64,000 nt of DNA from positions 1,364,001 to 1,428,000 of the forward strand of contig NZ_JARUND010000001.1 in the NCBI RefSeq assembly GCF_036898825.1, in the 5' to 3' direction. The stretch comes from Streptomyces sp. B21-083. Its GTDB lineage: Bacteria > Actinomycetota > Actinomycetes > Streptomycetales > Streptomycetaceae. Both the position numbers and the translations under genes were made by a program. The notes below the pieces were generated by a model. It was not told the origin of the DNA. It was given only the letters and a program-made list of their open reading frames with translations, and searched no databases. Positions 2,159 to 50,668 of the stretch are shown one piece after another; position 1 is the first letter of the stretch; every line of letters starts with the position of its first letter.

Positions 2159-2163
2159 CTGAC

Positions 2164-2799
2164 TCACCTCCTGGGGAGCAGCAAGGAACGGTGCCATTCG
2201 ACAAAAGCGGGAAGGACCGAACGAAGGACGCGGAAGGCCGATATTCCACCGCGAAGCGTTCCGATCCGGACGAGTTCATGTTCTGGAGCGTCCACGACCA
2301 CCCGTACGGCCGCAACGGGGCGCACGCCCGTGCGCACGGCGCTGTGGAGCGTGGCCGCCGACTCCATGTCGACCGCGATTGCGCCGGTCGCGAGCAGCTC
2401 CGACCGTTCGTGACCGCGCACGACGTGATCGGAACCGGTGAGCGGGCCGGTGTGCACCGTCCGCCCGGGTACGGCGCGCACCAGTTCCTTGACGAGCAGT
2501 TCGGTGCCGGCACAGGGTGTGACGCCCCCCGGACCCCGGGTCTCCTCGGCGACCACCAGGTCACCGGGGTGCATACCGGGGGCGAGTCCCGCGCAGAATC
2601 CGGTGGCCAGCAGGACGGCGTCACGCAGCGCCGGTTCTGCGAGAGCGCGGGTGACGGCCGCCGAGGCCGCCTCGGGACCCATTCCCGTACGCAGCACGGT
2701 GACGGGTCCGTCGCCGTGTCCGCCCCGGCGCAGGGCGAGCCGTTCGATGCCGAGCGCGCAGGCGATCAGCAGCGGGGCCGGCTCGGGCCGCCTGTCCAT
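2164..2799 (-). CDS. hpnG: Adenosylhopane nucleosidase / phosphorylase HpnG
   Basis: A 211-residue protein of the purine nucleoside phosphorylase / MTA-SAH nucleosidase fold. HpnG removes adenine from adenosylhopane to give ribosylhopane. The sequence shows the family pattern GMGPEAA near residue 40 and the late VDMESAATLHSA segment, where the Met-Glu pair contacts ribose. ATG 2799 overlaps the shc stop by one base (TGATG), implying translational coupling. If shc is truly frameshifted, ribosomes on the broken frame would not reach this junction normally, so expression of hpnG could also suffer. Confidence 0.9.
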   Translation of the reverse strand: MDRRPEPAPLLIACALGIERLALRRGGHGDGPVTVLRTGMGPEAASAAVTRALAEPALRDAVLLATGFCAGLAPGMHPGDLVVAEETRGPGGVTPCAGTELLVKELVRAVPGRTVHTGPLTGSDHVVRGHERSELLATGAIAVDMESAATLHSAVRTGVRPVAAVRVVVDAPEHELVRIGTLRGGISAFRVLRSVLPAFVEWHRSLLLPRR

Positions 2800-4795: not shown

Positions 4796-4909
4796 GGCTT
4801 CCCCTTCGTGCAGTGGCATGTCTCTGCTGACTGGGTCCGCCGTCGGCCGGTGCGCCACTGAACGCGACGCCGGCCGGCGACTACGCGAGGCTTATTCGAC
4901 CGATAGTGA

Positions 4910-6040
4910 TCATCTCTTTCGTACGACGACGAAGTCGGCGAGCGCCGTGAACTGCGCGCGCACCCGGTCGGGCATGTCGATGGCGCTCAGTGCGTCGACG
5001 GCGATGGTGTGCTGCCGGCGCGCCTCCCCGGCGGTCCATTCCCGGCCGCCCGCCTGCTCGATCAGGGCGGCGCGGGCGGCGAACTCCTCCTCGGAGAAGT
5101 TCTCGAAGTCGCTGCTCTTCGCGTCGGCGGCGAGGAGTTCACCGAGCCGCTCGGCGGCCGGGCCGCTCGCCGCGAGGGCGGCGACGACGGGCAGGGACTT
5201 CTTGCGCTGACGCAGATCGCTCCACGTCTGCTTGCCGGTGGCCTCCGGGTCGCCCCAGATGCCGAGGAGGTCGTCGACGGCCTGGAAGGCCAGGCCGAGG
5301 TGGTAGCCGTACTTCTCCAGCGTGTCGGCGGTGTGGTCGTCCGCGCCGCCGAGGACCGCGCCGATGGAGCTGGCGCAGGCGAGCAGGGCGCCGGTCTTGT
5401 TGCCCTCCATCTCCAGGCACTCCTCGACGCTCACGCGGTCGCGGTGCTCGTAGGAGATGTCCTGCGCCTGGCCGTCGATGAGGGCACGGGTCGCGGTGGT
5501 GAGGCGGCGGGTGGCCCGGCCGGCCTCGACGGTGCCGAGTTCCAGGAGGATCTCATTGGCCAGCGCGAACAGTGCGTCGCCGACCAGGATGGCCTGGGCG
5601 GGACCGTGCACCTTCCAGACGGTGTCGCGGTGGCGGCGCTGTTCGTCACCGTCCATCAGGTCGTCGTGCAACAGCGAGAAGTTGTGCACCAGTTCGACGG
5701 CGACGGCGCCGGGGATGCCGACCTCGGGGGCGGCCCCGGTGACCTCGGCGGACAGCACGGCGAGCGCGGGACGTACGGCCTTGCCGCCGTCGCCGGCCGC
5801 CGGCCTGCCCTGGGCGTCGATCCAGCCGAAGTGGTAGGCGGAGACGGTGTCCATGGGCGCCGCGAGACGGTTGATCGCCGCCCGCAGTACCGGGGTGGCC
5901 AGGGTCCGGCCGCGCTCCAGGAGCACGGTCACGTCCACGGCGTCGGCGGCTTTCGGGGCCGGGGGCACAGTGGGCACAGTCTCTCCTCTTGTTGCGGTGC
6001 TGGGGGTGCGGGGACCTGCCGTGTGCTGATGATCGAGCAT
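4910..6040 (-). CDS. Polyprenyl (farnesyl/geranylgeranyl-type) diphosphate synthase
   Basis: A 376-residue trans-isoprenyl diphosphate synthase, probably making farnesyl diphosphate for HpnD. The first Asp-rich motif DDLMD is at residues 126-130. The second is DDLLGIWGD at 256-264, a variant that ends GIWGD instead of DDxxD, as in many actinobacterial members. Residues 1-35 are a Pro/Thr-rich, probably disordered extension. ATG 6040 overlaps the hpnE stop (TGATG). A 114-nt gap separates it from shc, the widest spacing inside this operon. Chain length cannot be read from the sequence alone. Confidence 0.88.
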   Translation of the reverse strand: MLDHQHTAGPRTPSTATRGETVPTVPPAPKAADAVDVTVLLERGRTLATPVLRAAINRLAAPMDTVSAYHFGWIDAQGRPAAGDGGKAVRPALAVLSAEVTGAAPEVGIPGAVAVELVHNFSLLHDDLMDGDEQRRHRDTVWKVHGPAQAILVGDALFALANEILLELGTVEAGRATRRLTTATRALIDGQAQDISYEHRDRVSVEECLEMEGNKTGALLACASSIGAVLGGADDHTADTLEKYGYHLGLAFQAVDDLLGIWGDPEATGKQTWSDLRQRKKSLPVVAALAASGPAAERLGELLAADAKSSDFENFSEEEFAARAALIEQAGGREWTAGEARRQHTIAVDALSAIDMPDRVRAQFTALADFVVVRKR

Positions 6041-7458
6041 CAGGCCGCCTCCTCGACATCGAAGAGGTGGTGGCGGGGCCGGCCCAGGGCGCCCAGCGCG
6101 GCGCCGGCCGCACCGACTCCGCTGCGGACCGCACTCTCCATGGTCGCGGGCCACCCGGTGGCGGTCCACGAACCGGCCAGGTACAGGCCGGGGGCGTTGG
6201 TACGGGCGCCGGGCCGCAGCCGGCCGACGCCGGGGGTGGGGGCGAACGTCGCTGTCCGCTCCCGGGTGACGAAGAAGTCCCTTACTCCGGCGCCCCGCGT
6301 GCGGGGCAACAGCCGCTCCAGCTCCGGCAGATACCGCTCGCGCAGCGCCGCCACGGGCTCGTCGATCTCGTCGTGCGCGGCCGACTGCGACAGCGCCAGA
6401 TACTGGCCGTCGCCGCCGAGCCCGGACGCCTCGGTCCGGTCGAAGACCCACTGCACCGGGCTGCCCAGCGCCGCGAGGAACGGCGTGTTCAGCACCTTGC
6501 GGTCGTACACCACATGCACGTTGAGGATGGGCGCGGTGCCGATCTCCAGCAGCCGTTCGGGGGCGTCGAGCGCGCCCTCCGGCAGCAGATCGTGCGCCTC
6601 GCGCTGGGCCACGGCGAGCACGACGGCGTCCACGTCGAGCGTCTCGCCGGGAACCGACACGGTCCAGCGGCCGTTCTCGTTGTGTCGCACGGAGGTGACG
6701 CGTGTACGGACTTCGGTACGCACGCCCGCGGAGTCGAGCGCCTTGCGGGCCAGAGTGTCGTGCAGTTCGCCCAGCGGGACACGCGCCCAGCCGATGTCGG
6801 CCGCGCCCGGGTCGGACAGCAGACCGGTCTTGAACACCATCGCGGCGAGCCCCAGGGACGAGTCCCCGGCCACCGCGTTGAGGGTGGCGACCCCCACCAG
6901 GTCCCACAGTGCCTCGACTGCACGCGGCGACTGACCGTGCGCGGCCAGCCAGCTGCCGAAGTTCTGCGCGTCCAGCGCCGGGTCGGCGAGGTCCAGCGCC
7001 TTGAGCGCGAGCGCGGCGCGTCCCACTCCGGCGCGCTCGGCGAGCGAGAGATGCGGATAGGTGGCCAGGCTACGCCCGAGATGCAGAGGTACGGGCAGCG
7101 CGTCGCGCCGGAGTCTCCCCAGGCGCCGGCCGGCCGGCTTCGCCATGTCGACGACAGGTACGTCGAGACGGGCCTGCACCGGAGCGAGCGCGGCGCCGTC
7201 GATACGGTCGAGGAACCAGCGGTACGCGGTGCAGCACCGCAGGTACACGTGCTGGCCGTTGTCGACGGTCAGTCCGTCGCGCTGGAAGGAGAAGGCGAGG
7301 CCGCCGAGGCGAGGCCGGCCTTCGAGCAGCGTGACACGGACACCGGCGTCGGCGAGCGAGAGCGCCGCGGTGATGCCTGCCAGTCCGCCGCCGACCACCA
7401 CGGCGCTCTTCTCACCGCGGTGTCCCGGACGTTCCCCGGGCTGGGTGCTCCCGCTCAT
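6040..7458 (-). CDS. hpnE: Squalene-associated FAD-dependent desaturase HpnE
   Basis: HpnE reduces hydroxysqualene to squalene in the three-enzyme HpnC/D/E route. The 472-residue flavoprotein has an N-terminal dinucleotide fold (VVGGGLAGITAA, about residues 20-32), the following EGRPRLGG stretch, and a C-terminal AGSWTATGWPATMESAVRSG FAD segment. ATG 7458 has a purine-rich AGGGGGGAG upstream and overlaps the stop of the small upstream ORF (ATGA). Phytoene-dehydrogenase annotation is the common alternative, but its position between hpnD and a prenyl synthase in a cluster with shc favours HpnE. Confidence 0.92.
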   Translation of the reverse strand: MSGSTQPGERPGHRGEKSAVVVGGGLAGITAALSLADAGVRVTLLEGRPRLGGLAFSFQRDGLTVDNGQHVYLRCCTAYRWFLDRIDGAALAPVQARLDVPVVDMAKPAGRRLGRLRRDALPVPLHLGRSLATYPHLSLAERAGVGRAALALKALDLADPALDAQNFGSWLAAHGQSPRAVEALWDLVGVATLNAVAGDSSLGLAAMVFKTGLLSDPGAADIGWARVPLGELHDTLARKALDSAGVRTEVRTRVTSVRHNENGRWTVSVPGETLDVDAVVLAVAQREAHDLLPEGALDAPERLLEIGTAPILNVHVVYDRKVLNTPFLAALGSPVQWVFDRTEASGLGGDGQYLALSQSAAHDEIDEPVAALRERYLPELERLLPRTRGAGVRDFFVTRERTATFAPTPGVGRLRPGARTNAPGLYLAGSWTATGWPATMESAVRSGVGAAGAALGALGRPRHHLFDVEEAA

Positions 7459-7595
7459 CGCGCACTCCCCCCTGCACACCCGTCGCGCCGGACGAACGCC
7501 GCACGGCAGGCCGTTGAAGTCAGGGACGCCGTCCCCGGCCGGAGGGTTGCGCGCCGGTTCGCCGCGGGCGCGTCGTCCTGGACCGAATCGTCCAT
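7455..7595 (-). CDS. Small 46-residue ORF wedged between hpnD and hpnE
   Basis: The reading frame begins MDDSVQDDAP and ends ...CAGGSAR. Its ATG shares a base with the hpnD stop (TGATG) and its TGA overlaps the hpnE ATG (ATGA), so it fills the inter-gene space exactly. That arrangement, and an Asp-rich start followed by an Arg/Thr/Ser-rich basic part, make it a real translated unit more likely than chance. I recall a similar short uncharacterised protein at this place in other Streptomyces hopanoid clusters. There is no recognisable domain, signal or membrane segment, and the function is unknown. It may serve mainly to couple translation of hpnD to hpnE. Confidence 0.65.
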   Translation of the reverse strand: MDDSVQDDAPAANRRATLRPGTASLTSTACRAAFVRRDGCAGGSAR

Positions 7596-8545
7596 CAGAC
7601 CCGCCTCCTGACGGTCCGCCGGGACACATGCCGGGCGTCCAGGCCGGACAGGCCGCGCACCGCGACGTACGCCTTCTCGCGTCCCGGCAGGGAGACCCGG
7701 CCGCGCAGCACGGCCTCCGGCTCGCGCTCGATGCGGTCGAGGAGCCGTCGGTAGATGCCGGCCATGGCGGCGACACAGGCGCCGCTGCGCCGGTCGAGCA
7801 TGGGCAGCAGGCGGTAGCCCTCGGCGAACAGGGTGCGGGCGCGCCGTACTTCGAAGTGGACGAGGCCCGCGAAGTCGGAGCCCTCCGGCGGGTTCGGGCC
7901 GTTGAACCCGGCCGAGCAGCCGAACTTGGCGAGGTCGTCGGCGGGCAGATAGGTCCGCCCGCTGTCGGCGTCCTCGCGGATGTCCCGCAGGATGTTGGTG
8001 AGCTGGAGGGCGAGCCCCAGCGTGTCGGCGTACTCGAAGGCGCGTTCCGAGCCGCGCGCGCCCCGCTCCGTACCGAACACCCCCAGGGACAGCCGCCCGA
8101 TGGCCCCGGCCACACAGCGGCAGTAGACCTTCAGGTCGTCCCAGGTCTCGTACGTCTCGCCGTGTACGTCCATCACGACGCCGTCGATGAGTTCGTCGAG
8201 GCCGCCGAGCGGGATCGGGAAGTGTGTCCCCGCGTGGCTGAGGGCGACCGCGACCGGGTCGGTGTCGTCCTCGCCGATCGCGCCCTCGCGCACCCGTGCG
8301 AGCAGTGCTCTGGTGTCCTCCAGCCGTGCCGCCTTGACCTCCGGGGCCAGCGGGCCGTCACCGATGTCGTCGACGCGGCGCGAGAACGCGTACAGGGCCG
8401 ACATCGCGCGCCGCTTCGACGTAGGCAGCAGTCTGATGCCGTAGGCGAAGTTGCGGGCCTGGTGACCGGTGACGGACTCGCAGTAGGTGTAGGCCGCGAG
8501 TACCGGTGCGGACACGTGTGGTTCCGACTCCACGCTCCGGATCAC
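7595..8545 (-). CDS. hpnD: Presqualene diphosphate synthase HpnD
   Basis: A 316-residue squalene/phytoene synthase family enzyme that condenses two FPP molecules to presqualene diphosphate. Both Asp motifs are present: RRVDDIGD near residue 57 and LTNILRDIREDADSGRTYLP near residue 183, which bind the Mg2+-diphosphates. GTG at 8545 overlaps the hpnC stop (GTGA). A start a few codons later (VSAPVLAAYTY) is possible. Distinguished from HpnC by the canonical second motif and by its position after hpnC in the operon. Confidence 0.92.
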   Translation of the reverse strand: MIRSVESEPHVSAPVLAAYTYCESVTGHQARNFAYGIRLLPTSKRRAMSALYAFSRRVDDIGDGPLAPEVKAARLEDTRALLARVREGAIGEDDTDPVAVALSHAGTHFPIPLGGLDELIDGVVMDVHGETYETWDDLKVYCRCVAGAIGRLSLGVFGTERGARGSERAFEYADTLGLALQLTNILRDIREDADSGRTYLPADDLAKFGCSAGFNGPNPPEGSDFAGLVHFEVRRARTLFAEGYRLLPMLDRRSGACVAAMAGIYRRLLDRIEREPEAVLRGRVSLPGREKAYVAVRGLSGLDARHVSRRTVRRRV

Positions 8546-9444
8546 CCCTTTCCTCGCAGGGTTGTGCCCGCCTCGCGCAGCAACTGGATCCTGCCGGGCT
8601 TGGGCGGGCCGGGAAGTACGTCGTATTCGGCGGCGGCGATCGCCTGGATCGCCGCCTTTCCCCCCGCCACGAAACCCGCGAGCAGCAGCTTCAGCCTGCC
8701 GTGGACGCTACCCACGAGGGGGGTGCCTTCATTCAGCAGGCGGCGCGCTCGTTCCGCTTCGTATGCGATCAGTGCGCGCACGGACGCGTCCGCGGTGGGA
8801 GCGGCGAGATCCGACTCCTGGACGCGGAAGCGCTTCATGTCCTGGGCGGGCAGATAGATCCGGTCTCGGCCGAGGTCCTCGGCGACGTCCTGGAGGTGCT
8901 CGACGATCTGGAGGGCGGTGCACACGGTGTCGGAGCGGCGGATCCGCTCGGGCGTCGCGGTGCCGGTGACGGCGAGGACGAGGCGTCCGACGGGGTTGGC
9001 GGACAACTCGCAGTAGGCGAGGAGGTCGTCGTACGTCTCGTACCGCTTGACCAGCTGGTCCTGGCGATTGGCGGCGATCAGGCCGAGGAACGGCTCGGGG
9101 GTCAGCGAACGGCTGCGGACGGTCGGCTGCAGCCTGCGCAGCAGGGGGTGGCGCGGGGTGCCGTCGAAGACCCTGCGCAGGTCGGCCTCGAACGCGTCGA
9201 GGAGGACGAGCCGGTCGTCGGCCTCGGCGGGCACCACGCCCAGCAGGCGGGCGTCGGCGCCGCCGGGGGCCAGGTCGCCGTCGCCGATGTCGTCGACCAG
9301 GCGGGCGAAGCCGTAGACGGCCATCAGGTCGGTGCGCCAGGCCCTGGGCAGGAAGAACGGTGCCACGGGGAAGTTCTCGTGCGCGGCCTTGTCGAGCGTG
9401 CCGCGCTCAGTATCGTCGGTCCGCGTGGGGCCGGTCGCCGTCAC
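8542..9444 (-). CDS. hpnC: Hydroxysqualene synthase HpnC
   Basis: A squalene/phytoene synthase family protein of about 300 residues that converts presqualene diphosphate to hydroxysqualene. The motifs are ARLVDDIGDGD near residue 50 and a divergent second motif HLQDVAEDLGRDRIYLP. Start choice is uncertain. GTG 9444 (VTATGPTRTDD) is preferred because a 21-codon ORF with a good GGGAGA site ends in a TGA overlapping it (GTGA); GTG 9474 would lengthen it by 10 Arg/Pro-rich residues and has no visible ribosome-binding site. It is the first enzyme gene of the operon. Confidence 0.9.
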   Translation of the reverse strand: MTATGPTRTDDTERGTLDKAAHENFPVAPFFLPRAWRTDLMAVYGFARLVDDIGDGDLAPGGADARLLGVVPAEADDRLVLLDAFEADLRRVFDGTPRHPLLRRLQPTVRSRSLTPEPFLGLIAANRQDQLVKRYETYDDLLAYCELSANPVGRLVLAVTGTATPERIRRSDTVCTALQIVEHLQDVAEDLGRDRIYLPAQDMKRFRVQESDLAAPTADASVRALIAYEAERARRLLNEGTPLVGSVHGRLKLLLAGFVAGGKAAIQAIAAAEYDVLPGPPKPGRIQLLREAGTTLRGKG

Positions 9445-9506
9445 CGTTCGCTGCCCGGGGCGGGGACGGCGCACGCTGTGGGGAGCTGGGGAGTTTCCGT
9501 AGCCAT
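9441..9506 (-). CDS. Possible 21-codon leader ORF before hpnC
   Basis: ATG 9506 follows GGGAGA at a suitable distance and reads MATETPQLPTACAVPAPGSER before a TGA at 9443-9441. That TGA overlaps the GTG 9444 proposed for hpnC. It could couple translation to the operon, or mark a +1 indel that detached an original hpnC N-terminus. No function is evident. Confidence 0.35.
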   Translation of the reverse strand: MATETPQLPTACAVPAPGSER

Positions 9507-9825: not shown

Positions 9826-10605
9826 CTACTTGCCGGTGAACTTCTCGTACTCCTTGAGGACCTCGTCCGTCGGGCCGTCCATGCGCAGTTCGCCGCGTTC
9901 CAGCCACAGGACGCGGTCGCAGGTGTCGCGGATGGACTTGTTGTTGTGGCTGACGAGGAACACCGTGCCGGCGTGCTTGCGCAGTTCGCGGATCCGGTCC
10001 TCGGAGCGCTTCTGGAAGGACCGGTCGCCGGTCGCCAGCGCCTCGTCGATCATCAGTACGTCATGGTCCTTGGCGGCGGCGATGGAGAACCGCAGCCGCG
10101 CCGCCATACCGGAGGAGTAGGTGCGCATCGGCAGGGTGATGAAGTCGCCCTTCTCGTTGATGCCGGAGAAGTCGACGATCTGCTGGTAGCGCTCCTTGAT
10201 CTCCTCGCGGGACATACCCATCGCGAGGCCGCCCAATATGACGTTCCGTTCGCCCGTGAGGTCGTTCATCAGGGCGGCGTTGACGCCGAGGAGAGAGGGC
10301 TGCCCGTCCGTGTACACGTAGCCGCTCTCGGCGGGGAGCAGACCGGCGATGGCACGCAACAGGGTCGACTTGCCGGAACCGTTGGAGCCGATCAGCCCGA
10401 CGGCCTCACCCCGGTACGAGACGAAGGAGACGCCCCGTACGGCGTGCACCTTGCGTACGCCCGGTGAGTCGCCGCGCCTGATGATGCGGCTGAGGGCGGA
10501 GGTTGCGCTGCCCTTGCCGGTCTTGGCGCCGTTGACGCGGTAGACGATGTGGAGCTCGTCCGCGATGACGGTGGGGATCTTGTCCCCGGGGATCGGGTCA
10601 GCCAC
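9826..10605 (-). CDS. ABC exporter ATPase (Wzt/TagH type, polysaccharide or teichoic-acid-like export)
   Basis: A 259-residue nucleotide-binding subunit with Walker A GSNGSGKS near residue 73, signature YSSGMAARLRFSIA near 168 and Walker B DVLMIDEA near 186. The Wzt/TagH family drives export of finished lipid-linked polymers. There is no C-terminal carbohydrate-binding domain, so recognition of a modified chain end is not expected. GTG 10605 overlaps the permease stop by 8 nt. It is the last gene of the seven-gene surface-polymer cluster and is followed by a strong hairpin. Confidence 0.9.
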   Translation of the reverse strand: MADPIPGDKIPTVIADELHIVYRVNGAKTGKGSATSALSRIIRRGDSPGVRKVHAVRGVSFVSYRGEAVGLIGSNGSGKSTLLRAIAGLLPAESGYVYTDGQPSLLGVNAALMNDLTGERNVILGGLAMGMSREEIKERYQQIVDFSGINEKGDFITLPMRTYSSGMAARLRFSIAAAKDHDVLMIDEALATGDRSFQKRSEDRIRELRKHAGTVFLVSHNNKSIRDTCDRVLWLERGELRMDGPTDEVLKEYEKFTGK

Positions 10606-11527
10606 GACCGTACCTCTCCTCCGACTGCCAGAAGTACACGAATCCGCCGACGGCGAAGAGCGCGGCCCAGGCGCCGGCGACCGCCCAGACGTGCGGCGGC
10701 AGGTTCTCCGGGCCGTAGCCGTCGATGAGCGCGAAGCGCATCAGGTCCATGTAGATGGCGGCCGGGTTCCACTGGAGGGCGTCGGCGACCCACCTGGGTT
10801 TGTCGGCGAGCATGACCGGGATGGAGAACATCACGCCGGACGCGTACATCCACGTGCGCATCACGAACGGCATCAGCTGGGCGAGGTCGGGAGTCGCCGA
10901 GCCCCACCGGGCCATGATCAGCGCGAGGCCGGTGTTGAACAGGAACTGGAGTGCCAGCGCCGGGACGATCAGCAGCCAGGACGCCTTGGGGTAGCTGCCG
11001 AAGCCGATCGACACCACGAACAGCACGAGCATCGAGAAGAGCAGCTGCTGGAGTTGCTGCAGCGCGAAGGAGACCGGCAGCGCGGCGCGCGGGAAGTGCA
11101 GGGCGCGCACCAGACCGAGGTTCCCGGAGATCGCGCGGACGCCCGCCATCACCGAGCTCTGCGTGAAGGTGAACACGAAGACGCCCGTGACGAGGAACGG
11201 GATGTACACCTCGCGGGGCATGCCGCGGTCGGCTTTGAGGATCACGCCGAAGATGAAGAAGTACACGGCCGCGTTCAGCAGCGGTGTGGCCACCTGCCAC
11301 AGCTGGCCGAGTTTGGCCTGGCTGTACTGGGCGGTCAGTTTCGCCTGCGAGAAGGCGAGGATGAAGTGACGCCGTCCCCAGAGCTGGCGGACGTACTCGA
11401 CGAGTCGAGGGCGGGCGCCGCTCACGGCGAGCCCGTACTTCGCGGCGAGTTCGGCCGCGGAGAGGCCGTCGTCGGGTGACGGTCGGTCGCTCACCGCGAC
11501 ACCGCCGTCATGCGTTGTCTCACTCAC
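10598..11527 (-). CDS. ABC-2 type exporter permease (Wzm/TagG type)
   Basis: A 309-residue membrane protein of the ABC-2 family. About 60 hydrophilic N-terminal residues precede six hydrophobic segments (for example AAVYFFIFGVIL, FLVTGVFVFTF, LLFSMLVLFVVSIGF, LLIVPALALQFLF, VWAVAGAWAALFAVGGFVYF). It pairs with the downstream ATPase to move polymer or lipid-linked glycan across the membrane. The GTG 11527 start has a poor ribosome-binding site; an internal GTG (VSDRPSPDD) is an alternative. A 99-nt gap separates it from the glycosyltransferase gene. Confidence 0.9.
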   Translation of the reverse strand: MSETTHDGGVAVSDRPSPDDGLSAAELAAKYGLAVSGARPRLVEYVRQLWGRRHFILAFSQAKLTAQYSQAKLGQLWQVATPLLNAAVYFFIFGVILKADRGMPREVYIPFLVTGVFVFTFTQSSVMAGVRAISGNLGLVRALHFPRAALPVSFALQQLQQLLFSMLVLFVVSIGFGSYPKASWLLIVPALALQFLFNTGLALIMARWGSATPDLAQLMPFVMRTWMYASGVMFSIPVMLADKPRWVADALQWNPAAIYMDLMRFALIDGYGPENLPPHVWAVAGAWAALFAVGGFVYFWQSEERYGRG

Positions 11528-11626
11528 AAATGGAAACTTTCGTCTTCAATATGCGCAGCTGAACGGGGCAGAGCGCGGGCCGGGTCCAGGATTCGGCCGG
11601 CCCGCGGGGCTCTCGGAGAGAGCTTG

Positions 11627-12511
11627 TCAGATCACTGGGGGGCGGCCCAGTCGGGTCAGCCGCCACACCGTACGCCACCGGATGGGCCGGCGGGGTCCGC
11701 ACGGGGTGGTCAGCCCCTCCTTGAACCCGCCCCACCAGGCTCTGAGCGCCGGGCGGGAGGGTCGGCGGAGAAGTGTGAGGAGCAGCCAGTCCCCCAGGTA
11801 GACCGGCACCAGGGGGGCGGGGAGGTTGCGGCGGGCCAGCCAGACCCGGTTGCGGGCGACCATGCGGTGGTAGACCGCGTGCCGCGAGGGCGCGGTCGCC
11901 GGATGGTAGAGCAGCATGTCGGCCCGGTAGTCGATCATCCAGCCGGCGTCGAGGGCCCGCCAGGCGAGGTCGGTCTCCTCGTGGGCGTAGAAGAACTCCT
12001 CGGGGAGGATGCCCACTTGGGCGAAGACCTTCGTACGGACGGCGTTGGCGCCGCCGAGGAAACTGGTGACGCGGGAACTGCGCATCGGGTCCGTGGTGCC
12101 CGGGCGGGGCACGTGGCGGCGCTGGGTGAGGCCGGTGTCGGGGTCGGCGATGCGGAAGCTGATGATGCCCAGGCGAGGGTCGGCGGTGAAGGCCCGGCGG
12201 CACAGTTCGGCGGTGTCCTGGTGGCCGAGGAGGCCGTCGTCGTCCAGGAACATCAGGATGTCGACGTCGCTGCCCGCCGGGCCGAACGCCTCGATACCGA
12301 CGTTGCGTCCGCCGGGGATGCCGAGGTTCTCGGGCAGCTCGACGCTCCGTACGCCCTCGGGGAGGTCCGGGACGGGCGAGCCGTTGCCGACCACGACGAC
12401 CTGGACCGGGTCGCCCTCCTGTTTGGCGATCGAGTCGACGAGGGCGCGCAGTTCGTCGGGGCGGTTGCCCATGGTGATGATCACCGCGCCGACTCTCATC
12501 CCGGTACTCAC
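11627..12511 (-). CDS. Family 2 glycosyltransferase
   Basis: A 294-residue GT-A fold enzyme. Residues 8-110 show the nucleotide-sugar domain: VGAVIITMGNRPDELRALVDSI, then FLDDDGL holding the metal-binding DxD, and later EEFFYAHEETDLAWRA, the acceptor/base ED-type motif. The C-terminal third is basic (RRPSRPALRAW...), suggesting membrane-surface association. GTG 12511 overlaps the preceding stop (GTGA). It probably adds a sugar to the product of the two CDP-alcohol phosphotransferases; the sugar and linkage cannot be read from the sequence. Confidence 0.88.
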   Translation of the reverse strand: MSTGMRVGAVIITMGNRPDELRALVDSIAKQEGDPVQVVVVGNGSPVPDLPEGVRSVELPENLGIPGGRNVGIEAFGPAGSDVDILMFLDDDGLLGHQDTAELCRRAFTADPRLGIISFRIADPDTGLTQRRHVPRPGTTDPMRSSRVTSFLGGANAVRTKVFAQVGILPEEFFYAHEETDLAWRALDAGWMIDYRADMLLYHPATAPSRHAVYHRMVARNRVWLARRNLPAPLVPVYLGDWLLLTLLRRPSRPALRAWWGGFKEGLTTPCGPRRPIRWRTVWRLTRLGRPPVI

Positions 12512-13290
12512 CGCAACCTGCTCGACGCGAGGATGGACACGAGGTGCAGCACGGTCTGCAGGATCGCGATACCGGCCAGGACCGCGATGCCCAGGCGGGT
12601 CCAGAACAGGTCGCCGCCGATGACGTCGAGGAGCGCCACGAAGAGGATGAACAGGCTCGCCTCGATGCCGCCGATCAGCCGGTGGAACCTGAGCGCGGCG
12701 GCGGCCTTACGCGCCAGGGCGAGCCCCTCGGAGCGCGGCACCGACAGCTCGTCCTTGGCGGCGGCCAGACCGCTGCGGGTCCTGGCGACGTCCACCAGGT
12801 CGGTCTCCGCCTTGATCAGGATCGCGCCGAGAGCGGCCAGGGTGCCGATGAACGCCCACAGCCACTCGGGGCTCCCGGAGCCGTCCCACAGGTCGGCGCC
12901 GCGCAGGCCGAAGCCGATCAGCAGGGCCGCCTCGGAGAGGTAGTGGCCGATGCGGTCGAGGTACACGCCGGTGATCGAGGTCTGGTTGCGCCAGCGGGCG
13001 AGTTCCCCGTCGACGCAGTCGAGGAGCAGGTACAGCTGCATCAGTACGACGGCCAGGACCGCGCCGGTGAGGCCCGGCACCAAGAGCGCCGCGCCTGCCG
13101 TGCCGCCCGCGACGACCATCAGGTACGTGAGCTGGTTGGGCGTGATCCTGGTGTCCACCAGGTAGCGGTCGACCCGCAGGGACACCTCGCGCATGTAGAG
13201 GCGTCCCGCCCAGTGCTCGCCGCTGCGCCGGTCCTTCACCCCTTCGGGGTGGACGACGGGGCGTAGTTCAGCTACCGATGGCCTTGACAT
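12508..13290 (-). CDS. CDP-alcohol phosphotransferase family membrane protein, variant active site
   Basis: 260 residues with about six hydrophobic segments. The family motif DX2DGX2ARX8GX3DX3D is present as D91, D94-G95, A98-R99, G108 and D112, but the last Asp is His116 (DRIGHY). That Asp is normally the catalytic base, so this copy may use another residue, have changed specificity, or be a partner of the second, canonical paralogue at 15066-16919. ATG 13290 overlaps the dehydrogenase gene by 23 nt. Confidence 0.85.
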   Translation of the reverse strand: MSRPSVAELRPVVHPEGVKDRRSGEHWAGRLYMREVSLRVDRYLVDTRITPNQLTYLMVVAGGTAGAALLVPGLTGAVLAVVLMQLYLLLDCVDGELARWRNQTSITGVYLDRIGHYLSEAALLIGFGLRGADLWDGSGSPEWLWAFIGTLAALGAILIKAETDLVDVARTRSGLAAAKDELSVPRSEGLALARKAAAALRFHRLIGGIEASLFILFVALLDVIGGDLFWTRLGIAVLAGIAILQTVLHLVSILASSRLR

Positions 13291-14329
13291 AGTCCGCGTA
13301 CGTGTCCTTGATCTGGTCGTATCTGAGGTCGAGGTGTTCCAGGATCGTGTAGCGACCGGGTCTGGTCTGCGGGGCGTACTCGACGACCCGTACGAACTCG
13401 TCCGTGGTGAAGCCGATCTCCTCCGGCAGCACCGGCAGCCCGTGCCGGCGCAACACCTCGGCCATGTACGCCGACTCCTCGTGCGCGCCCCGCAGATGCA
13501 TGGCGAAGGCGGCGCCGAGGCCGCACTGTTCGCCGTGGCTCGCGGCCCGCCTGGGGTACAGCAGGTCGAAGGCGTGGTTGATCTCGTGGCAGGCGCCGGA
13601 GGACGGGCGGGAGTCGCCCGACACCGACATGGCGATACCGGTGAGGACCAGGGCCTCGGCCAGCACCTGGAGGAACGCGTTGTCGCCGACCCCGCCGGGG
13701 TGGCGCAGCACGGCCTCGCCCGCCTGGCGGGCCATCGCGGCGGCGAGGCCGTCGATCTTCTCCCCGTTGACCTGACTTGCCAGCTCCCAGTCGGCGACCG
13801 CGGAGATGTTCGACATGGCGTCGCCGATCCCGGAGCGCACGAACCGCGCCGGGGCCTCGCGGATCACGTCGAGGTCGATGACGACCGCGATCGGGTTGGG
13901 TACGCCGTACGAGCCGCGCCCCGCGTCGTTGTCGAGGGTGGCGACCGGGGAGCAGAGACCGTCGTGCGCGAGGTTGGTGGCGACGGCGACGAGGGGCAGC
14001 CCGACCCGGGCGGCGGCGAACTTGGCGCAGTCGATGATCCGGCCGCCGCCGAGGCCGACCACGGCGTCGTAGTGGCCGGACTTGATGGCGTCGGCCAGCC
14101 GGATCGCGTCGTCGATGGTGCCGCCGGCGACCTCGTACCAGCTGGCGCCGGGCAGCGCGGGGGTGAGCCGCGCGCGCAGCTTGGCGCCGGAACCGGAACT
14201 GACCGCGACGGCGATCTTCCCGGAGTGCGAGATCCGCTGGTCGAACAGCACGTCCGCCAGGTGGTCCAGGGCCCCCCGGCGGATGTCGACGACGACCGGC
14301 GAGGGGATCAGCCTCGTCAGTACCGGCAC
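13268..14329 (-). CDS. Glycerol-1-phosphate dehydrogenase-like protein (iron-containing ADH / DHQS superfamily)
   Basis: A 353-residue protein of the family that includes archaeal G1P dehydrogenase and Bacillus AraM. It shows the NAD-binding GLGGGRIIDCAKF stretch near residue 92, TNLAHDGLCSP, and metal-ligand candidates in SGIGDAMSN, CHEINHAFD and SHGEQCG. The likely reaction is reduction of DHAP to sn-glycerol-1-phosphate. GTG 14329 overlaps the nucleotidyltransferase stop by 13 nt. Its position between a nucleotidyltransferase and CDP-alcohol transferases suggests it supplies the polyol phosphate that is activated and transferred. Substrate identity is inference. Confidence 0.8.
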   Translation of the reverse strand: MPVLTRLIPSPVVVDIRRGALDHLADVLFDQRISHSGKIAVAVSSGSGAKLRARLTPALPGASWYEVAGGTIDDAIRLADAIKSGHYDAVVGLGGGRIIDCAKFAAARVGLPLVAVATNLAHDGLCSPVATLDNDAGRGSYGVPNPIAVVIDLDVIREAPARFVRSGIGDAMSNISAVADWELASQVNGEKIDGLAAAMARQAGEAVLRHPGGVGDNAFLQVLAEALVLTGIAMSVSGDSRPSSGACHEINHAFDLLYPRRAASHGEQCGLGAAFAMHLRGAHEESAYMAEVLRRHGLPVLPEEIGFTTDEFVRVVEYAPQTRPGRYTILEHLDLRYDQIKDTYADYVKAIGS

Positions 14330-15069
14330 GCGATCTCCCGTCCTCGGGCGAGATCGGCGTGGTTGTCTATCTCGACCCACGGGACCTCGCCGATGGGTGC
14401 CACGTCGATGCGGAAACCACGGTCGACCAGTTCCTGGTAACCGTGCTCGTAGAACTGCTGGGGGTCGGACTCCCACACGGTCTTCAGGGCGTCGGCCAGG
14501 TCGGCGGCGGCGGCGCCCTCGATGAGGGTGACGCCGATGTACTCACCGGTGGCCGCCGCGGGGTCCATCAGCTTGGTGATCTTCCGTACGCCCTGTTCCG
14601 GGTCCACGATCACCTTCATCTCCTCGTCGGCGAGATCCTTCACCGTGTCGAGGGCCAGGATGATGCGCTTCCCGTCACCGCGCGCGGCGAGCAGCGTCCG
14701 CTCGACGGAGACGGGGTGCACGGTGTCGCCGTTGGCGAGGATCACCCCGTCGGCGAGGGCGTCCCGGCCGCACCAGAGGGAGTAGGCGTTGTTCCACTCC
14801 TCGGCGCGGTCGTTGTCGATGAGGGTGAGCTTCAGCCCGTACTTCTTCTCCAGGGCCGTCCGCCGCTCGTACACGGCTTCCTTGCGGTAGCCGACGATGA
14901 TCGCCACCTCGCTGAGGCCGATCTCGGCGAAGTTGGCGAGGGTGAGGTCGAGCACGGTGGGGCCGTCCTCGTCGCCCGCTGGGCCGACCTGCACGAGAGC
15001 CTTGGGCAGGCTGTCGGTGTAGGGGCGCAGACGCCGTCCGGCGCCGGCCGCCAGCACGAGGCCGATCAT
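14317..15069 (-). CDS. NTP-transferase family sugar/polyol-phosphate nucleotidyltransferase
   Basis: 250 residues. It starts with the Rossmann-like signature LVLAAGAGRRLRPYTDSLPKAL (residues 4-25), where the Gly-rich loop and Lys bind the NTP. NGDTVH near 117 provides the metal-binding Asp, and VEIDNHADL near 238 the second Asp. Relatives include choline-phosphate and inositol-phosphate cytidylyltransferases, so a CDP-alcohol is the natural guess in this context. ATG 15069 overlaps the preceding stop (ATGA). Confidence 0.85.
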   Translation of the reverse strand: MIGLVLAAGAGRRLRPYTDSLPKALVQVGPAGDEDGPTVLDLTLANFAEIGLSEVAIIVGYRKEAVYERRTALEKKYGLKLTLIDNDRAEEWNNAYSLWCGRDALADGVILANGDTVHPVSVERTLLAARGDGKRIILALDTVKDLADEEMKVIVDPEQGVRKITKLMDPAAATGEYIGVTLIEGAAAADLADALKTVWESDPQQFYEHGYQELVDRGFRIDVAPIGEVPWVEIDNHADLARGREIACRY

Positions 15070-16919
15070 GCGGGTACTCCTTCGTCGTGGACGGCGGGGG
15101 CGCCGCCCTGGTGGGCGATCACCCAGTAGCGGATGCTCTCGGCGAGCACCAGCAGGGCCACGGCCACGGCGAGGACCGTGAGCGCGACCACGAACTGCGA
15201 GGCGGTGAGCAGCGCGGCCAGTACGACGACCACCAGTGTCCGGCCCTCGTGCCCGCCGCTCGCCCGTACCAGCCAGCGCGGGGGCGCTCCGGCGTTGCCA
15301 CGGATGCGGTACACCGTGTCGTAGTGATGGTAGGCGACGGCGGCCACGAGGCCGAAAGCCGCGGGAAGTGCTCCATTTGCCTCCGCTTTGCCCGCGAGAA
15401 GGAGGACTGTGCCGTATTCGGCGGCCCGGAAGAGCGGGGGGACGAGCCAGTCGAGGCGGCCCATGAGGGGCAGTGCGACCGCGCCGCCCGCGCTGAGCAC
15501 GTACAACACGGAGAGGGCCACGGGGATCGGGCTGCCGTACCCGCACGCCCATACGGCGAAGATCAGCACCGCCGTACCTTCCAGCGCGAGGAGGAGGCGC
15601 GAGCCGCCCGTTGTACGCCCGGGGACGCGCCCGACCAGCTCCGCGAGCGGCCCGCTGTCCGCGAGGTCCGCCAGGGCCTGTGCAGCGCGCTCGGTGCGCT
15701 GGGCCTTTCGGGTGAGTGAGCGCAGGACGCGGCCCGCCGTGGTGTACGTGGCCGCGAAGCCGCAGCCGACGAGCAGCACGGTGAAGGTGGCCCGGGGAGT
15801 GGTGAGGGCGGTGAGCACGGCGATCAGGGCCCAGCGCTCGCCGATCGGCAGGACGATCATCCGTCGCACCCAGACCGTCCAGCCGACGCCGTCCAGACGG
15901 TCGGAGAGGGCGGCCGTGGGGCTGGTGTTCGCCGTCGCGGCCGGGTCTCCGGCGTTCGCCTCGTTGAAGGCGAAGTCGACGACGTGCCGGCAGCTCTGCA
16001 GGACCATCGCGCCGAGGGCCAGCGCCCATACGTCGTCGCCGGCGCGTGCCGCCCCGAGTGCGAGGCCCGCGTAGAAGGCGTACTCCTTTGCGCGGTCGAA
16101 GGTGGCGTCCAGCCAGGCGCCGAGCGTCGAGTACTGGAGGGAGTAGCGGGCGAGCTGGCCGTCCGCGCAGTCCAGGACGAAGGAGACCAGGAGGAGCAGG
16201 CCCGCCGTGACGTAGCCGCCGCGGGTGCCGGTGGCCGCGCAGCCGGCCGCGATCAGCGCGGTGAGCAGCGAGGCGGTGGTGACCTGGTTCGGGGTGAGGC
16301 CCCGGCGGGCGCACCAGCGGGCCAGATAGCGGGAGTAGGGGCTGACGCAGAAGGTGGTGAAGAAGCCGTCCCGGGACTTCACGGCCGACTTCAGGCGTAC
16401 GGCCTCGTCGTCGACGGCGGCGACGGCCCGCCGTGCCTCGTCGCGGGCCTCGGGGTCGGCGGGGACGGCGGCGGTCAGGCTGCCAAGACCGGGGCGGTGG
16501 ATGTCGGCGCCGTCCGCGTCCAGGGCGAAGGCGATGCGGTCGGCGAGGCTGTCCACGGCGACGGCGGAAGCGGCGAAGGCGGCTTTGCCGGGGTTCGTCG
16601 GGGCGTCGCCGCTCGCGGAGATCTCCCGGGCCAGTACGCGGGTCAGGGCGGTGCGGCCGGCGCCGGGCTGTGCCGACAGGGCGCCCGGTACCGCGGCGAG
16701 CGGGAAGCGGGGGTCGGTGAGACCGAGGCGCAGCGCGTGGAGGTGGCCGACGAAGCGGGCGTCGACTACGGCGACCCGTTCGTCACAGGGCGATTCGGCG
16801 ATGAGGGTCTCGGTGTCGGCGACGTCGGTCGCGCTCCGCACGTCGAAGCCGAGGGACCGCAGATCGCCCTCGATCGACGATCCGGGAACCGGCTGACCCG
16901 TGAGGATGGCGGTCGGCAA
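15066..16919 (-). CDS. Large CDP-alcohol phosphotransferase membrane protein with N-terminal extension
   Basis: 617 residues. The first 180 or so are soluble and of no family I can name. From about 195 there is a CDP-alcohol phosphotransferase core with the complete motif D250, D253-G254, A257-R258, G267, D271, D275. After it come further hydrophobic segments to the C-terminus (for example LLLALEGTAVLIFAVWACG, TLVVVVLAALLTASQFVVALTVLAVAVALLVLAESI). TTG 16919 is chosen for the GGGAG at proper spacing. It is the first gene of the surface-polymer operon and carries the only canonical active site of the two paralogues. Confidence 0.85.
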   Translation of the reverse strand: MPTAILTGQPVPGSSIEGDLRSLGFDVRSATDVADTETLIAESPCDERVAVVDARFVGHLHALRLGLTDPRFPLAAVPGALSAQPGAGRTALTRVLAREISASGDAPTNPGKAAFAASAVAVDSLADRIAFALDADGADIHRPGLGSLTAAVPADPEARDEARRAVAAVDDEAVRLKSAVKSRDGFFTTFCVSPYSRYLARWCARRGLTPNQVTTASLLTALIAAGCAATGTRGGYVTAGLLLLVSFVLDCADGQLARYSLQYSTLGAWLDATFDRAKEYAFYAGLALGAARAGDDVWALALGAMVLQSCRHVVDFAFNEANAGDPAATANTSPTAALSDRLDGVGWTVWVRRMIVLPIGERWALIAVLTALTTPRATFTVLLVGCGFAATYTTAGRVLRSLTRKAQRTERAAQALADLADSGPLAELVGRVPGRTTGGSRLLLALEGTAVLIFAVWACGYGSPIPVALSVLYVLSAGGAVALPLMGRLDWLVPPLFRAAEYGTVLLLAGKAEANGALPAAFGLVAAVAYHHYDTVYRIRGNAGAPPRWLVRASGGHEGRTLVVVVLAALLTASQFVVALTVLAVAVALLVLAESIRYWVIAHQGGAPAVHDEGVPA

Positions 16920-18279: not shown

Positions 18280-18509
18280 GACCGTTCGGCGTGCGCCGTC
18301 GCCGGGACGCGGTCGTCCGGCGCGCGCCCGCGTCCCCTTCTTCAAGCCCCCTCACGGACGGTTCCCGGGCCGGGGAACAGGGCACGATGGACTATCACGT
18401 CACCGGCGGGTCGCTTTCGCGCCGGACATGCGGGGGGCGCCGCGAAGTGCCGGGAGTGCCGGATTCGTACGGCAGACTTGGGGCTCGAAGACCGAGGCGA
18501 AGGATGGGT

Positions 18510-19106
18510 ATGCCGATCACACCTGCCACCGCGACGCACAACAGTTCGTCGAACGGCACCGCAGAAGCGATCTTGCTCGAACTGGTCGACGAGAACGGCA
18601 CGACGATCGGCACCGCCGAGAAGCTCTCCGCCCACCAGCCACCGGGCCGGCTGCACCGGGCGTTCTCCGTTTTCCTCTTCGACGAGCAGGGCCGACTGCT
18701 CCTGCAACAGCGCGCGTTGGGGAAATACCACTCCCCCGGTGTCTGGTCCAACACCTGCTGCGGCCACCCTTACCCCGGTGAGGCACCCTTCGCGGCGGCG
18801 GCCCGGCGGACGTACGAGGAGCTGGGCATCTCCCCGTCGCTGCTCGCCGAGGCGGGCACGGTCCGCTACAACCACCCGGACCCGGAGTCGGGTCTGGTGG
18901 AGCAGGAGTACAACCACCTTTTCGTCGGCATGGCGCAGTCGGCGCTCGCGCCGGACCCGGAGGAGGTCGGGGACACGGTTTACGTCACCCCGGCCGAGCT
19001 GGCGGAGCGGCATGCGAAGGACCCGTTCTCGGCCTGGTTCATGACCGTGCTGGACGCGGCGCGGCCGGCGGTCCGGGAGCTGACGGGTCCGTCGGCCGGC
19101 TGGTGA
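18510..19106 (+). CDS. idi: Isopentenyl-diphosphate delta-isomerase, type I
   Basis: A 198-residue Nudix-fold enzyme that interconverts IPP and DMAPP, linking functionally to the hopanoid operon upstream. Key residues visible are the catalytic Cys and metal His in NTCCGHPYPGE and the acidic EQEYNHLFVG segment, both hallmarks of type I enzymes. ATG 18510 has AAGGA upstream; an in-frame ATG two codons earlier (18504) is possible. It converges on the ATPase-domain gene and is followed by an 85-bp nested inverted repeat. Confidence 0.94.
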   Translation: MPITPATATHNSSSNGTAEAILLELVDENGTTIGTAEKLSAHQPPGRLHRAFSVFLFDEQGRLLLQQRALGKYHSPGVWSNTCCGHPYPGEAPFAAAARRTYEELGISPSLLAEAGTVRYNHPDPESGLVEQEYNHLFVGMAQSALAPDPEEVGDTVYVTPAELAERHAKDPFSAWFMTVLDAARPAVRELTGPSAGW

Positions 19107-21442: not shown

Positions 21443-21593
21443 GCTATGACTAGTTCCCGCCTTTCCTGCCACGGCTGGTGTTCGTGGCCCGAAGGCCGGT
21501 GACTTGCGGGGCGTGTGGCGTCCTGCTCCCCTGATGTCGGTGCCACCTGCCACAATTGCCGCGCAACCTCAGTGGAGAAGGCGGTACGGGATC

Positions 21594-50474: not shown

Positions 50475-50668
50475 GCCGAACTCCCCAGTCTGGTACGGAA
50501 GATGCGCAGCGGGAACGAGAGGAACCGGTGAGACGGTAGCGGTACCGAGACCGTTTATCCACACCCAGGACAAAGTTTGCCCTATCCCGGTCATACCTCT
50601 TGGCGAGCCGCCCAAAGGGGTCTAACTTCCTTTGCGTTTGCTGTGACCGAGGAGGGGTGGGTGGCCAC

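What the first reader, a model, noticed from the sequence alone, without database searches (positions are those of the whole stretch)
9826..16919. Seven-gene cluster likely making and exporting a glycerol-1-phosphate-based surface polymer
A G1P-dehydrogenase-like enzyme (archaeal-type stereochemistry), a nucleotidyltransferase, two CDP-alcohol phosphotransferases, a GT2 enzyme and a Wzm/Wzt-type ABC exporter are overlapped into one operon. Together they suggest DHAP to G1P to CDP-glycerol-type donor, then phosphodiester transfer, glycosylation and export. I know of no described product for this set in Streptomyces.
Basis: inference. Interest (0 to 1): 0.75.

Follow-up and report, generated by a model that had tools for sequence, protein, structure and literature searches.

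The report
Teichoic acid operon using glycerol-1-phosphate
A seven-gene operon conserved in Streptomyces and related bacteria looks like an unstudied part of the machinery that makes and exports wall teichoic acid, apparently using an archaeal-type enzyme to supply a mirror-image glycerol phosphate instead of the usual building block.

Summary
The seven genes are real and correctly placed (9826-16919, minus strand). A-F occur in 82 of 82 and G in 80 of 82 Streptomyces loci examined. Outside Streptomyces the same enzymes lie in wall teichoic acid (WTA) loci beside TagF-type polymerases or LCP ligases: 14 of 18 B-bearing loci against 1 of 17 control loci. This genome has one TagF elsewhere, next to an exporter 66%/82% identical to this one; searches found no second PF04464 gene (TagB), no TagD and no PcrB. 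In 148 class genomes the nucleotidyltransferase goes with PF04464 (34 of 35) and never with a strong TagD; outside the class the TagF link is weaker. Best reading: the operon makes sn-glycerol-1-phosphate, activates it to CDP-glycerol, and primes and exports WTA, replacing TagD/TagB. WTA membership is well supported; G1P stereochemistry is inferred from homology; the linkage-unit role is least certain. New oddity: the second CDP-alcohol phosphotransferase lacks the catalytic-base aspartate in every orthologue checked, while the first keeps it. A 2026 synteny paper already ties this region to teichoic acid; I found no mechanism in print.

The parts
15066..16919 (-). Gene A: N-terminal soluble domain + CDP-alcohol phosphotransferase (CAP) domain + C-terminal membrane domain DUF5941 (617 aa, TTG start)
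   Evidence: Pfam PF01066 and PF19365. TTG start agrees with homologues, whose consensus begins MPTAILTGQ. All 8 CAP signature residues kept in 81 of 82 Streptomyces loci, 1 unaligned. CAP part and DUF5941 are separate ORFs in several other actinobacteria.
14317..15069 (-). Gene B: nucleotidyltransferase of the LicC kind, proposed CTP:glycerol-1-phosphate cytidylyltransferase (250 aa)
   Evidence: PF00483 (found in the longer frame 14317-16314); best PDB match LicC 1jyk, then 4jd0; with the profile 6pd1 is third; ATGA overlap with A.
13268..14329 (-). Gene C: glycerol-1-phosphate dehydrogenase-like Fe-ADH_2 enzyme (353 aa, GTG start)
   Evidence: PF13685; PDB hits 3ce9, 4rgq; NCBIfam G1PDH model 228.8 bits, below its cut-off of 413; Asp/His/His metal ligands invariant 13 of 13 and 82 of 82.
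12508..13290 (-). Gene D: second CDP-alcohol phosphotransferase, without the fourth signature Asp (260 aa)
   Evidence: PF01066; nearest PDB AF2299; position D4 is His here, His 13 and Ala 2 of 15, Ala 78 and His 4 of 82 Streptomyces loci.
11627..12511 (-). Gene E: family 2 glycosyltransferase (294 aa)
   Evidence: PF00535; alignment A4 of 12 sequences.
10598..11527 (-). Gene F: ABC-2 permease of polymer-export type, TagG-like (309 aa)
   Evidence: PF01061; 66% identical over 292 aa to the permease at the TagF locus of the same genome.
9826..10605 (-). Gene G: ABC ATPase of polymer-export type, TagH-like (259 aa)
   Evidence: PF00005; best NCBIfam model TagH, 182 bits, below its cut-off of 320; 82% identical over 255 aa to the ATPase at the TagF locus of the same genome.

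Best explanation
The operon is the donor-supply, priming and export arm of wall teichoic acid (WTA) synthesis. Step 1 (inferred from family and metal ligands): C reduces DHAP to sn-glycerol-1-phosphate. Step 2 (inferred from family and B-C pairing): B joins it to CTP, giving CDP-glycerol of the opposite handedness from TagD's product. Step 3 (inferred): E adds a sugar to the polyprenyl-diphosphate-linked sugar made by a TagO-like enzyme, and the membrane CAP enzyme A, helped by its DUF5941 domain and by the base-less partner D, transfers glycerol phosphate onto it to form the linkage unit or primer; this takes the place of TagB and, where TagA is absent, of TagA. Step 4: a TagF-type polymerase encoded elsewhere extends the chain (the gene is shown, the reaction inferred). 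Step 5: F/G export the lipid-linked polymer and LCP enzymes attach it to peptidoglycan. My estimates by part: WTA membership about 0.85; C and B making CDP-activated G1P about 0.7; priming rather than main-chain or capping role about 0.45.
For: Context in other actinobacteria: PF04464, IspD-like, short-chain dehydrogenase, GDPD and LCP genes beside A-E; A, D and E beside a large TagF in L181, L182 and L183, and B-C-ABC-TagF with LCP genes in L180 (TagF of L183). WTA markers in 14 of 18 B-bearing and 18 of 21 D-bearing loci against 1 of 17 control loci. Co-occurrence in 148 class genomes: PF04464 at E 0.001 in 34 of 35 B-positive and 32 of 113 B-negative genomes; at E 1e-50, 32 of 35 and 13 of 113 (my count of the rows). 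Strong TagD (E at most 1e-30) in 0 of 34 genomes with B and PF04464, and in 7 of 32 with PF04464 but no B. Own genome: one PF04464 gene, next to a paralogous exporter and a TetR gene; no TagD match; PF00953 genes present. B-C pairing persists outside the class, in 5 of 6 strong B loci. Print: S. griseus WTA is ribitol phosphate with a terminal glycerol phosphate (PMC13274773, passages); tagO could not be deleted in S. coelicolor (PMC7300013, passages).
Against: No enzyme of the set has been assayed. C scores below the curated G1PDH cut-off and G below the TagH cut-off. Outside the class, only 2 of the 6 strong-B genomes (G315, G503) have PF04464 at E 1e-50 (weaker matches were not listed), and L172 and L174 hold A-G without a TagF or LCP marker in 15-16 kb. 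One B-positive class genome, G098, has no PF04464 match. This genome does hold one TagA-family gene (PF03808) on another contig, and 11 of 35 B-positive genomes have a match, one of them below the cut-off, so TagA is not cleanly replaced. Four of 11 Streptomyces have a diverged TagD-like match of 62-66 bits (one read as an ORF). In Streptomyces the operon lies beside hopanoid genes, not beside TagF. Co-occurrence was not corrected for shared ancestry. D lacks the catalytic base, so its part in step 3 is a guess.
Confidence: 0.55

Rival explanations
1. The operon makes its own second glycopolymer, separate from TagF-built WTA, with its own dedicated exporter; A and D are the polymerising phosphotransferases of a poly(glycosyl glycerol-1-phosphate).
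For: In Streptomyces the operon stands apart from TagF and carries its own exporter copy. Outside the class, 4 of 6 strong-B genomes show no PF04464 at E 1e-50. Two CAPs and one GT2 could in principle build a glycosyl-glycerol-phosphate repeat.
Against: Elsewhere A, D and E lie beside a large GT2-TagF polymerase (L181-L183), and within the class B occurs with PF04464 in 34 of 35 genomes.
Confidence: 0.17
2. C and B feed CDP-glycerol to TagF for the main chain, or to end or side decoration of ribitol WTA; A, D and E only add terminal or branch glycerol phosphate.
For: No strong TagD in any of the 34 class genomes with both B and PF04464; terminal glycerol phosphate seen in S. griseus WTA (PMC13274773, passages).
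Against: Decoration alone would not readily explain why A-E are kept in all 82 Streptomyces loci examined together with an exporter.
Confidence: 0.15
3. C acts on another polyol or keto phosphate, so B makes a different CDP-alcohol.
For: C is below the curated G1PDH cut-off, and its top PDB hit is deposited as a glycerol dehydrogenase; LicC-like enzymes have varied alcohol phosphate substrates (recalled).
Against: Most of C's other near relatives of known structure are G1PDHs, and C shares the SRPxSG motif with the M. jannaschii enzyme.
Confidence: 0.09
4. The genes make archaeal-like ether lipids, as proposed for Streptomyces with G1PDH (PMC6431249).
For: That paper lists Streptomyces among bacteria with G1PDH, GGGPS and DGGGPS orthologues (passages seen).
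Against: No PcrB/GGGPS family match in this genome, while the same search rings in archaea and B. subtilis; the operon has a polymer exporter and a GT2.
Confidence: 0.02
5. The operon makes a soluble phosphodiester osmolyte (as AF2299/IPCT-DIPPS relatives suggest) that is then exported.
For: D and A are nearest to AF2299 and IPCT-DIPPS by sequence.
Against: WTA gene context and the polymer-type exporter.
Confidence: 0.02

Closest known systems
Wall teichoic acid pathway of Bacillus subtilis / Staphylococcus aureus (TagO, TagA, TagB, TagD, TagF, TagGH, LCP)
   Same: TagF-type polymerase and TagGH-type exporter; PF00953 (TagO-class) genes in the genome; LCP ligases beside the set in relatives.
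   Different: No TagD match and no second PF04464 gene in this genome. Instead a G1PDH-like enzyme, a LicC-like nucleotidyltransferase, two membrane CAPs and another GT2.
Archaeal/bacterial G1P dehydrogenase (EgsA, AraM; names recalled)
   Same: Fe-ADH_2 family, metal ligands, SRPxSG motif.
   Different: Below the curated equivalog cut-off; paired with a nucleotidyltransferase, and no lipid-forming PcrB match in the genome.
LicC and related cytidylyltransferases (1jyk; 4jd0 and 6pd1, which I recall as IPCT and PntC)
   Same: Best solved relatives of B.
   Different: Paired with a dehydrogenase; the partner genes of the known enzymes are recalled, not tested.
AF2299 and IPCT-DIPPS CDP-alcohol phosphotransferases
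   Same: A and D share the CAP core.
   Different: A carries DUF5941; D has lost the base Asp; they sit with a polymer exporter.
tagG/tagH (orf4758/orf4757) and their paralogues orf659/orf658 of S. roseosporus (PMC10269677, passages)
   Same: Streptomyces genomes have one or two copies of this exporter; the pair regulated by the TetR protein TagR was complemented by B. subtilis tagG. This genome likewise has a second pair, beside a TetR gene.
   Different: That the operon's F/G correspond to orf659/orf658 is my inference.

Membership tests
Wall teichoic acid machinery (type I) | CDP-glycerol-type polymerase TagF (PF04464) in the genome | tested here: met
   One gene, G000:C1:3819000, E 1.2e-119; not in the operon.
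Wall teichoic acid machinery (type I) | TagB primer transferase (second PF04464 gene) | tested here: not met
   Only one PF04464 match in this genome. Other Streptomyces in the sample have 2 to 10; which of those are TagB-like was not tested.
Wall teichoic acid machinery (type I) | TagD glycerol-3-phosphate cytidylyltransferase | tested here: not met
   No match at E 0.001 in this genome; none of 148 genomes above the curated cut-off, although two come within a bit of it.
Wall teichoic acid machinery (type I) | TagA (PF03808) | tested here: inconclusive
   One gene in this genome on contig C2, E 2.9e-59; among 11 Streptomyces strong in 2 (this one included) and below the cut-off in 1.
Wall teichoic acid machinery (type I) | TagO-class primer (PF00953) | tested here: inconclusive
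   Three matches in this genome; MraY belongs to the same family (recalled).
Wall teichoic acid machinery (type I) | TagGH exporter | tested here: inconclusive
   G best matches TagH but at 182 bits against a cut-off of 320; F best matches the Wzm/RfbD permease model at 48 bits against 380. Close paralogues lie at the TagF locus.
Wall teichoic acid machinery (type I) | LCP ligase near the set in relatives | tested here: met
   12 of 18 B-bearing non-Streptomyces loci, 1 of 17 control loci. In the Streptomyces loci this was not tested.
sn-glycerol-1-phosphate dehydrogenase | Fe-ADH_2 domain and Asp/His/His metal ligands | tested here: met
   PF13685 6.8e-27; ligands 13 of 13, 82 of 82.
sn-glycerol-1-phosphate dehydrogenase | Curated equivalog score (NF002022, 413 bits) | tested here: not met
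   228.8 bits. I therefore call C G1PDH-like, not a filed member.
sn-glycerol-1-phosphate dehydrogenase | DHAP reduction to the sn-1 product | not testable with these tools
   Needs an assay.
CDP-alcohol phosphotransferase, gene A | Eight-residue signature D1xxD2GxxAR...GxxxD3xxxD4 | tested here: met
   81 of 82 Streptomyces loci, 1 unaligned; D4 is Asp in 17 of 17 sequences where the motif was found.
CDP-alcohol phosphotransferase, gene D | Same signature, including the catalytic base D4 | tested here: not met
   The seven other residues are kept in 15 of 15; D4 is His or Ala in 15 of 15 and 82 of 82. The other 6 CAPs of this genome keep it.
CTP:alcohol phosphate cytidylyltransferase (LicC-like) | Closest to CTP-using members of the NTP transferase family | tested here: met
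   Profile of B: LicC 5.4e-19, 4jd0 6.8e-16, 6pd1 2.2e-14, ahead of sugar nucleotidyltransferases (the CTP use of the last two is recalled). The named CTP:inositol-1-phosphate enzyme 2xme ranks below several of these (1.2e-06). CTP use by B itself was not tested.

The most novel reading that the evidence does not exclude
Actinobacteria start wall teichoic acid by a separate route: an archaeal-type dehydrogenase makes sn-glycerol-1-phosphate from DHAP, a LicC-like enzyme makes the mirror-image CDP-glycerol, and a membrane pair of CDP-alcohol phosphotransferases (an active one, A, fused to or partnered with DUF5941, and a base-less one, D) primes the lipid-linked sugar, replacing TagD and TagB. 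The base-less partner either pairs with A as a non-catalytic subunit or uses an acceptor, such as a phosphate, that needs no base. This would give G1PDH-like genes of this type a role in the wall rather than in membranes.
Probability: 0.4. Interest if true: 0.8.

Novelty: new variant of a known kind. Interest (0 to 1): 0.6.

Why it matters
If right, it supplies missing steps of teichoic acid synthesis in Streptomyces, where tagO could not be deleted in S. coelicolor (PMC7300013, passages). It gives a concrete alternative to the archaeal-like-lipid idea for G1PDH genes in actinobacteria (PMC6431249, passages). It predicts WTA glycerol phosphate of the enantiomer usual for lipoteichoic acid rather than for WTA (that the two are enantiomers and that GlpQ tells them apart: PMC7086022, seen only as title and abstract start in the listing; which is which is recalled), so an enzyme test is at hand. 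It also points to an unusual CDP-alcohol phosphotransferase without its catalytic base, and to a role for DUF5941.

Tried and rejected
Archaeal-like lipid reading: rejected because no PcrB match was found. Hopanoid link: the operon neighbours hopanoid genes in 81 of 82 Streptomyces loci, but none of the loci L036-L053 outside the genus matched hpnC or hpnD (E 1e-5), so I treat the neighbourhood as a Streptomyces-specific position. DUF5941 as a second CAP: profile comparison gave nothing, and the only PDB sequence hit was a chance one at E 1.9.

The A homologues in L043, L047 and L050 gave no CAP motif hit; the L047 one has no Pfam hit. They are missing from the D4 counts. Paper search was mostly noise.
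Full report
What is there. The finding's interval holds seven minus-strand genes, here A to G: A 16919-15066, B 15069-14317, C 14329-13268, D 13290-12508, E 12511-11627, F 11527-10598, G 10605-9826. Neighbours overlap by a few bases except E and F, which lie 99 bp apart. Domains: A has a CDP-alcohol phosphotransferase (CAP) domain plus DUF5941, B is a nucleotidyltransferase, C a Fe-ADH_2 dehydrogenase, D a second CAP, E a family 2 glycosyltransferase, F and G an ABC-2 permease and ATPase. The A start is a TTG, and the homologues align from that residue. Downstream are hopanoid-type genes (SQS_PSY pair at 9474-7595); upstream and divergent are a cation efflux gene and an ORF that I take for isopentenyl-diphosphate isomerase (18478-19044; name recalled, the gene is followed as 'idi').

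Conservation. With the window proteins as queries, A to F were found in 82 of 82 Streptomyces loci and G in 80, in the same order, with hpnC/hpnD beside them in 81. The 80 loci are the nearest relatives that the scan kept; 2 more came. In 148 genomes drawn from the class, B is present in 35 and DUF5941 in 37, including all 11 Streptomyces of the sample in both; 28 genomes have both. In 396 genomes drawn from the phylum, B matched in 31 at E 1e-30, of which six outside the class matched at better than 1e-100. In five of these six, C follows B at once; the sixth, L158, showed no C in its 3.7-kb locus. Weaker B homologues in L159, L163-L166 and L168 also have a C homologue next to them, while L160, L161, L162, L167 and L169 do not. 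B and C are therefore an old pair, which is the main reason to think that C's product is B's substrate.

Why wall teichoic acid. In the loci fetched outside Streptomyces (L036-L053) the set is not next to hopanoid genes. It is next to genes for PF04464 (TagF-like), LCP ligases, an IspD-type nucleotidyltransferase with a short-chain dehydrogenase (TarI/TarJ-like; that reading is recalled), GDPD and GT2 enzymes. In L181, L182 and L183, A, D and E lie beside a large TagF protein; in L180, B and C lie with an ABC exporter, such a TagF and LCP genes (L183). TagF, TagF-like or LCP markers were found in 14 of 18 B-bearing and 18 of 21 D-bearing loci, against 1 of 17 control stretches. L180-L183 were fetched because TagF was nearby; without them the counts are 13 of 17 and 15 of 18, and part of the matches are self-matches, since some reference proteins came from these loci. 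In the 148 class genomes, PF04464 is present at E 0.001 in 34 of 35 B-positive and 32 of 113 B-negative genomes (Fisher p 5e-14, with no correction for shared ancestry); at E 1e-50 the rows give 32 of 35 and 13 of 113.

Against it. Outside the class the link to TagF is weaker: of the six strong-B genomes only G315 and G503 have PF04464 at E 1e-50 (weaker matches were not listed), and L172 and L174 hold A-G with neither TagF nor LCP within 15-16 kb. In Streptomyces the operon is far from TagF.

This genome. It has a single PF04464 gene, on C1 at 3,819,000, whose locus carries GT87, an epimerase and a second exporter pair. That pair is 66% (permease) and 82% (ATPase) identical to F and G and lies beside a TetR gene. 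In S. roseosporus a TetR protein, TagR, represses such a pair, B. subtilis tagG complements it, and a second pair is expressed constitutively (PMC10269677, passages). That F/G correspond to this second pair is my inference. There are three PF00953 genes, one TagA-family gene on another contig, no TagD match and no PcrB match. Across the class sample, a strong TagD (E at most 1e-30) occurs in 0 of the 34 genomes with B and PF04464 and in 7 of the 32 with PF04464 alone (p 0.004, likewise uncorrected). Four of 11 Streptomyces have a weaker TagD-like match of 62-66 bits, one of which I read as a cytidylyltransferase-like frame. So the replacement of TagD is not proven for every Streptomyces.

The enzymes. 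C's best PDB hits are 3ce9 (145 bits, deposited as glycerol dehydrogenase) and M. jannaschii G1PDH (141 bits); other G1PDHs follow at 120 and 81 bits, and the remaining glycerol dehydrogenases reach at most 66. C scores 228.8 on the G1PDH equivalog model, below the cut-off of 413, against 93 on the glycerol dehydrogenase model, so I call it G1PDH-like. The three metal ligands are invariant. B's best solved relatives are LicC, 4jd0 and 6pd1, the last two recalled as an inositol-phosphate and a phosphonate cytidylyltransferase. A keeps all eight CAP signature residues in 81 of 82 Streptomyces loci, the last being unaligned, and D4 is Asp in 17 of 17 sequences where the motif was found and in 7 more. 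D keeps the seven other residues in 15 of 15 but never D4: His 13 and Ala 2 of 15, Ala 78 and His 4 of 82, His in the 8 good D orthologues. The other five CAPs of the genome and A keep D4. In the M. tuberculosis PIP synthase, a D4-to-N change nearly abolished activity without hurting substrate binding (PMC4634129, passages). So D probably binds a CDP-alcohol but does not use the normal base. Three divergent CAPs near B-like genes in L170, L177 and L178 do have Asp at D4; I do not count them as D.

How it most likely works. C makes sn-glycerol-1-phosphate, B makes CDP-glycerol, E and A (with DUF5941 and D) build a primer on a polyprenyl-linked sugar, a TagF elsewhere extends it, and F/G export it. 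Shown: gene content, conservation, context, distribution, residues. Inferred: every reaction. The least certain step is whether the glycerol phosphate enters the linkage unit, the main chain or a decoration. The S. griseus polymer is ribitol phosphate with a terminal glycerol phosphate (PMC13274773, passages and section 9), which leaves linkage and decoration open.

What is known. In searches I found no paper that assigns a reaction to these genes or describes a G1P/CDP-glycerol route to actinobacterial WTA. One 2026 paper on 929 Streptomyces genomes names a syntenic region with CDP-alcohol phosphatidyltransferase, GT2, nucleotidyltransferase, crtB, tagH, tagG and araM as associated with teichoic acid (PMC13118837, passages); its make-up matches this region. 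Another proposed that Streptomyces with G1PDH may make archaeal-like lipids (PMC6431249, passages). The library holds only open-licence papers, so subscription papers may say more.

Verdict. A real, conserved operon and a new variant of a known kind of system.

Noticed in passing
window 1136-9474, minus strand: Hopanoid-type gene cluster: radical SAM with DUF3463, polyprenyl synthetase, amine oxidase, and two squalene/phytoene synthase-like genes, directly downstream of the operon (the reading as hopanoid genes is recalled).
   Followed up: partly
L041 and L045 (also L048): A further DUF5941/CAP pair; in L041 undecaprenyl diphosphate synthase and recO genes lie next to it, L045 has the same neighbours and L048 shares one. 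Their genomes also have B. A link between this CAP and polyprenyl metabolism is possible.
   Followed up: no
L177 (8448-10007) and L178 (2976-4641): B-like nucleotidyltransferase next to a CAP with an intact signature but without a dehydrogenase match, perhaps the same module for another alcohol phosphate.
   Followed up: no
L039 and L040: A and D with an exporter and a different nucleotidyltransferase (26% identical to B) but no dehydrogenase match; LCP-type genes alongside.
   Followed up: no
window 50600-55407: ThuA/glucose-sorbosone dehydrogenase-like protein followed by a protein with a 3-keto-disaccharide hydrolase domain and Ig-like domains.
   Followed up: no
window 21504-23993: Tex-like RNA-binding protein gene.
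   Followed up: no
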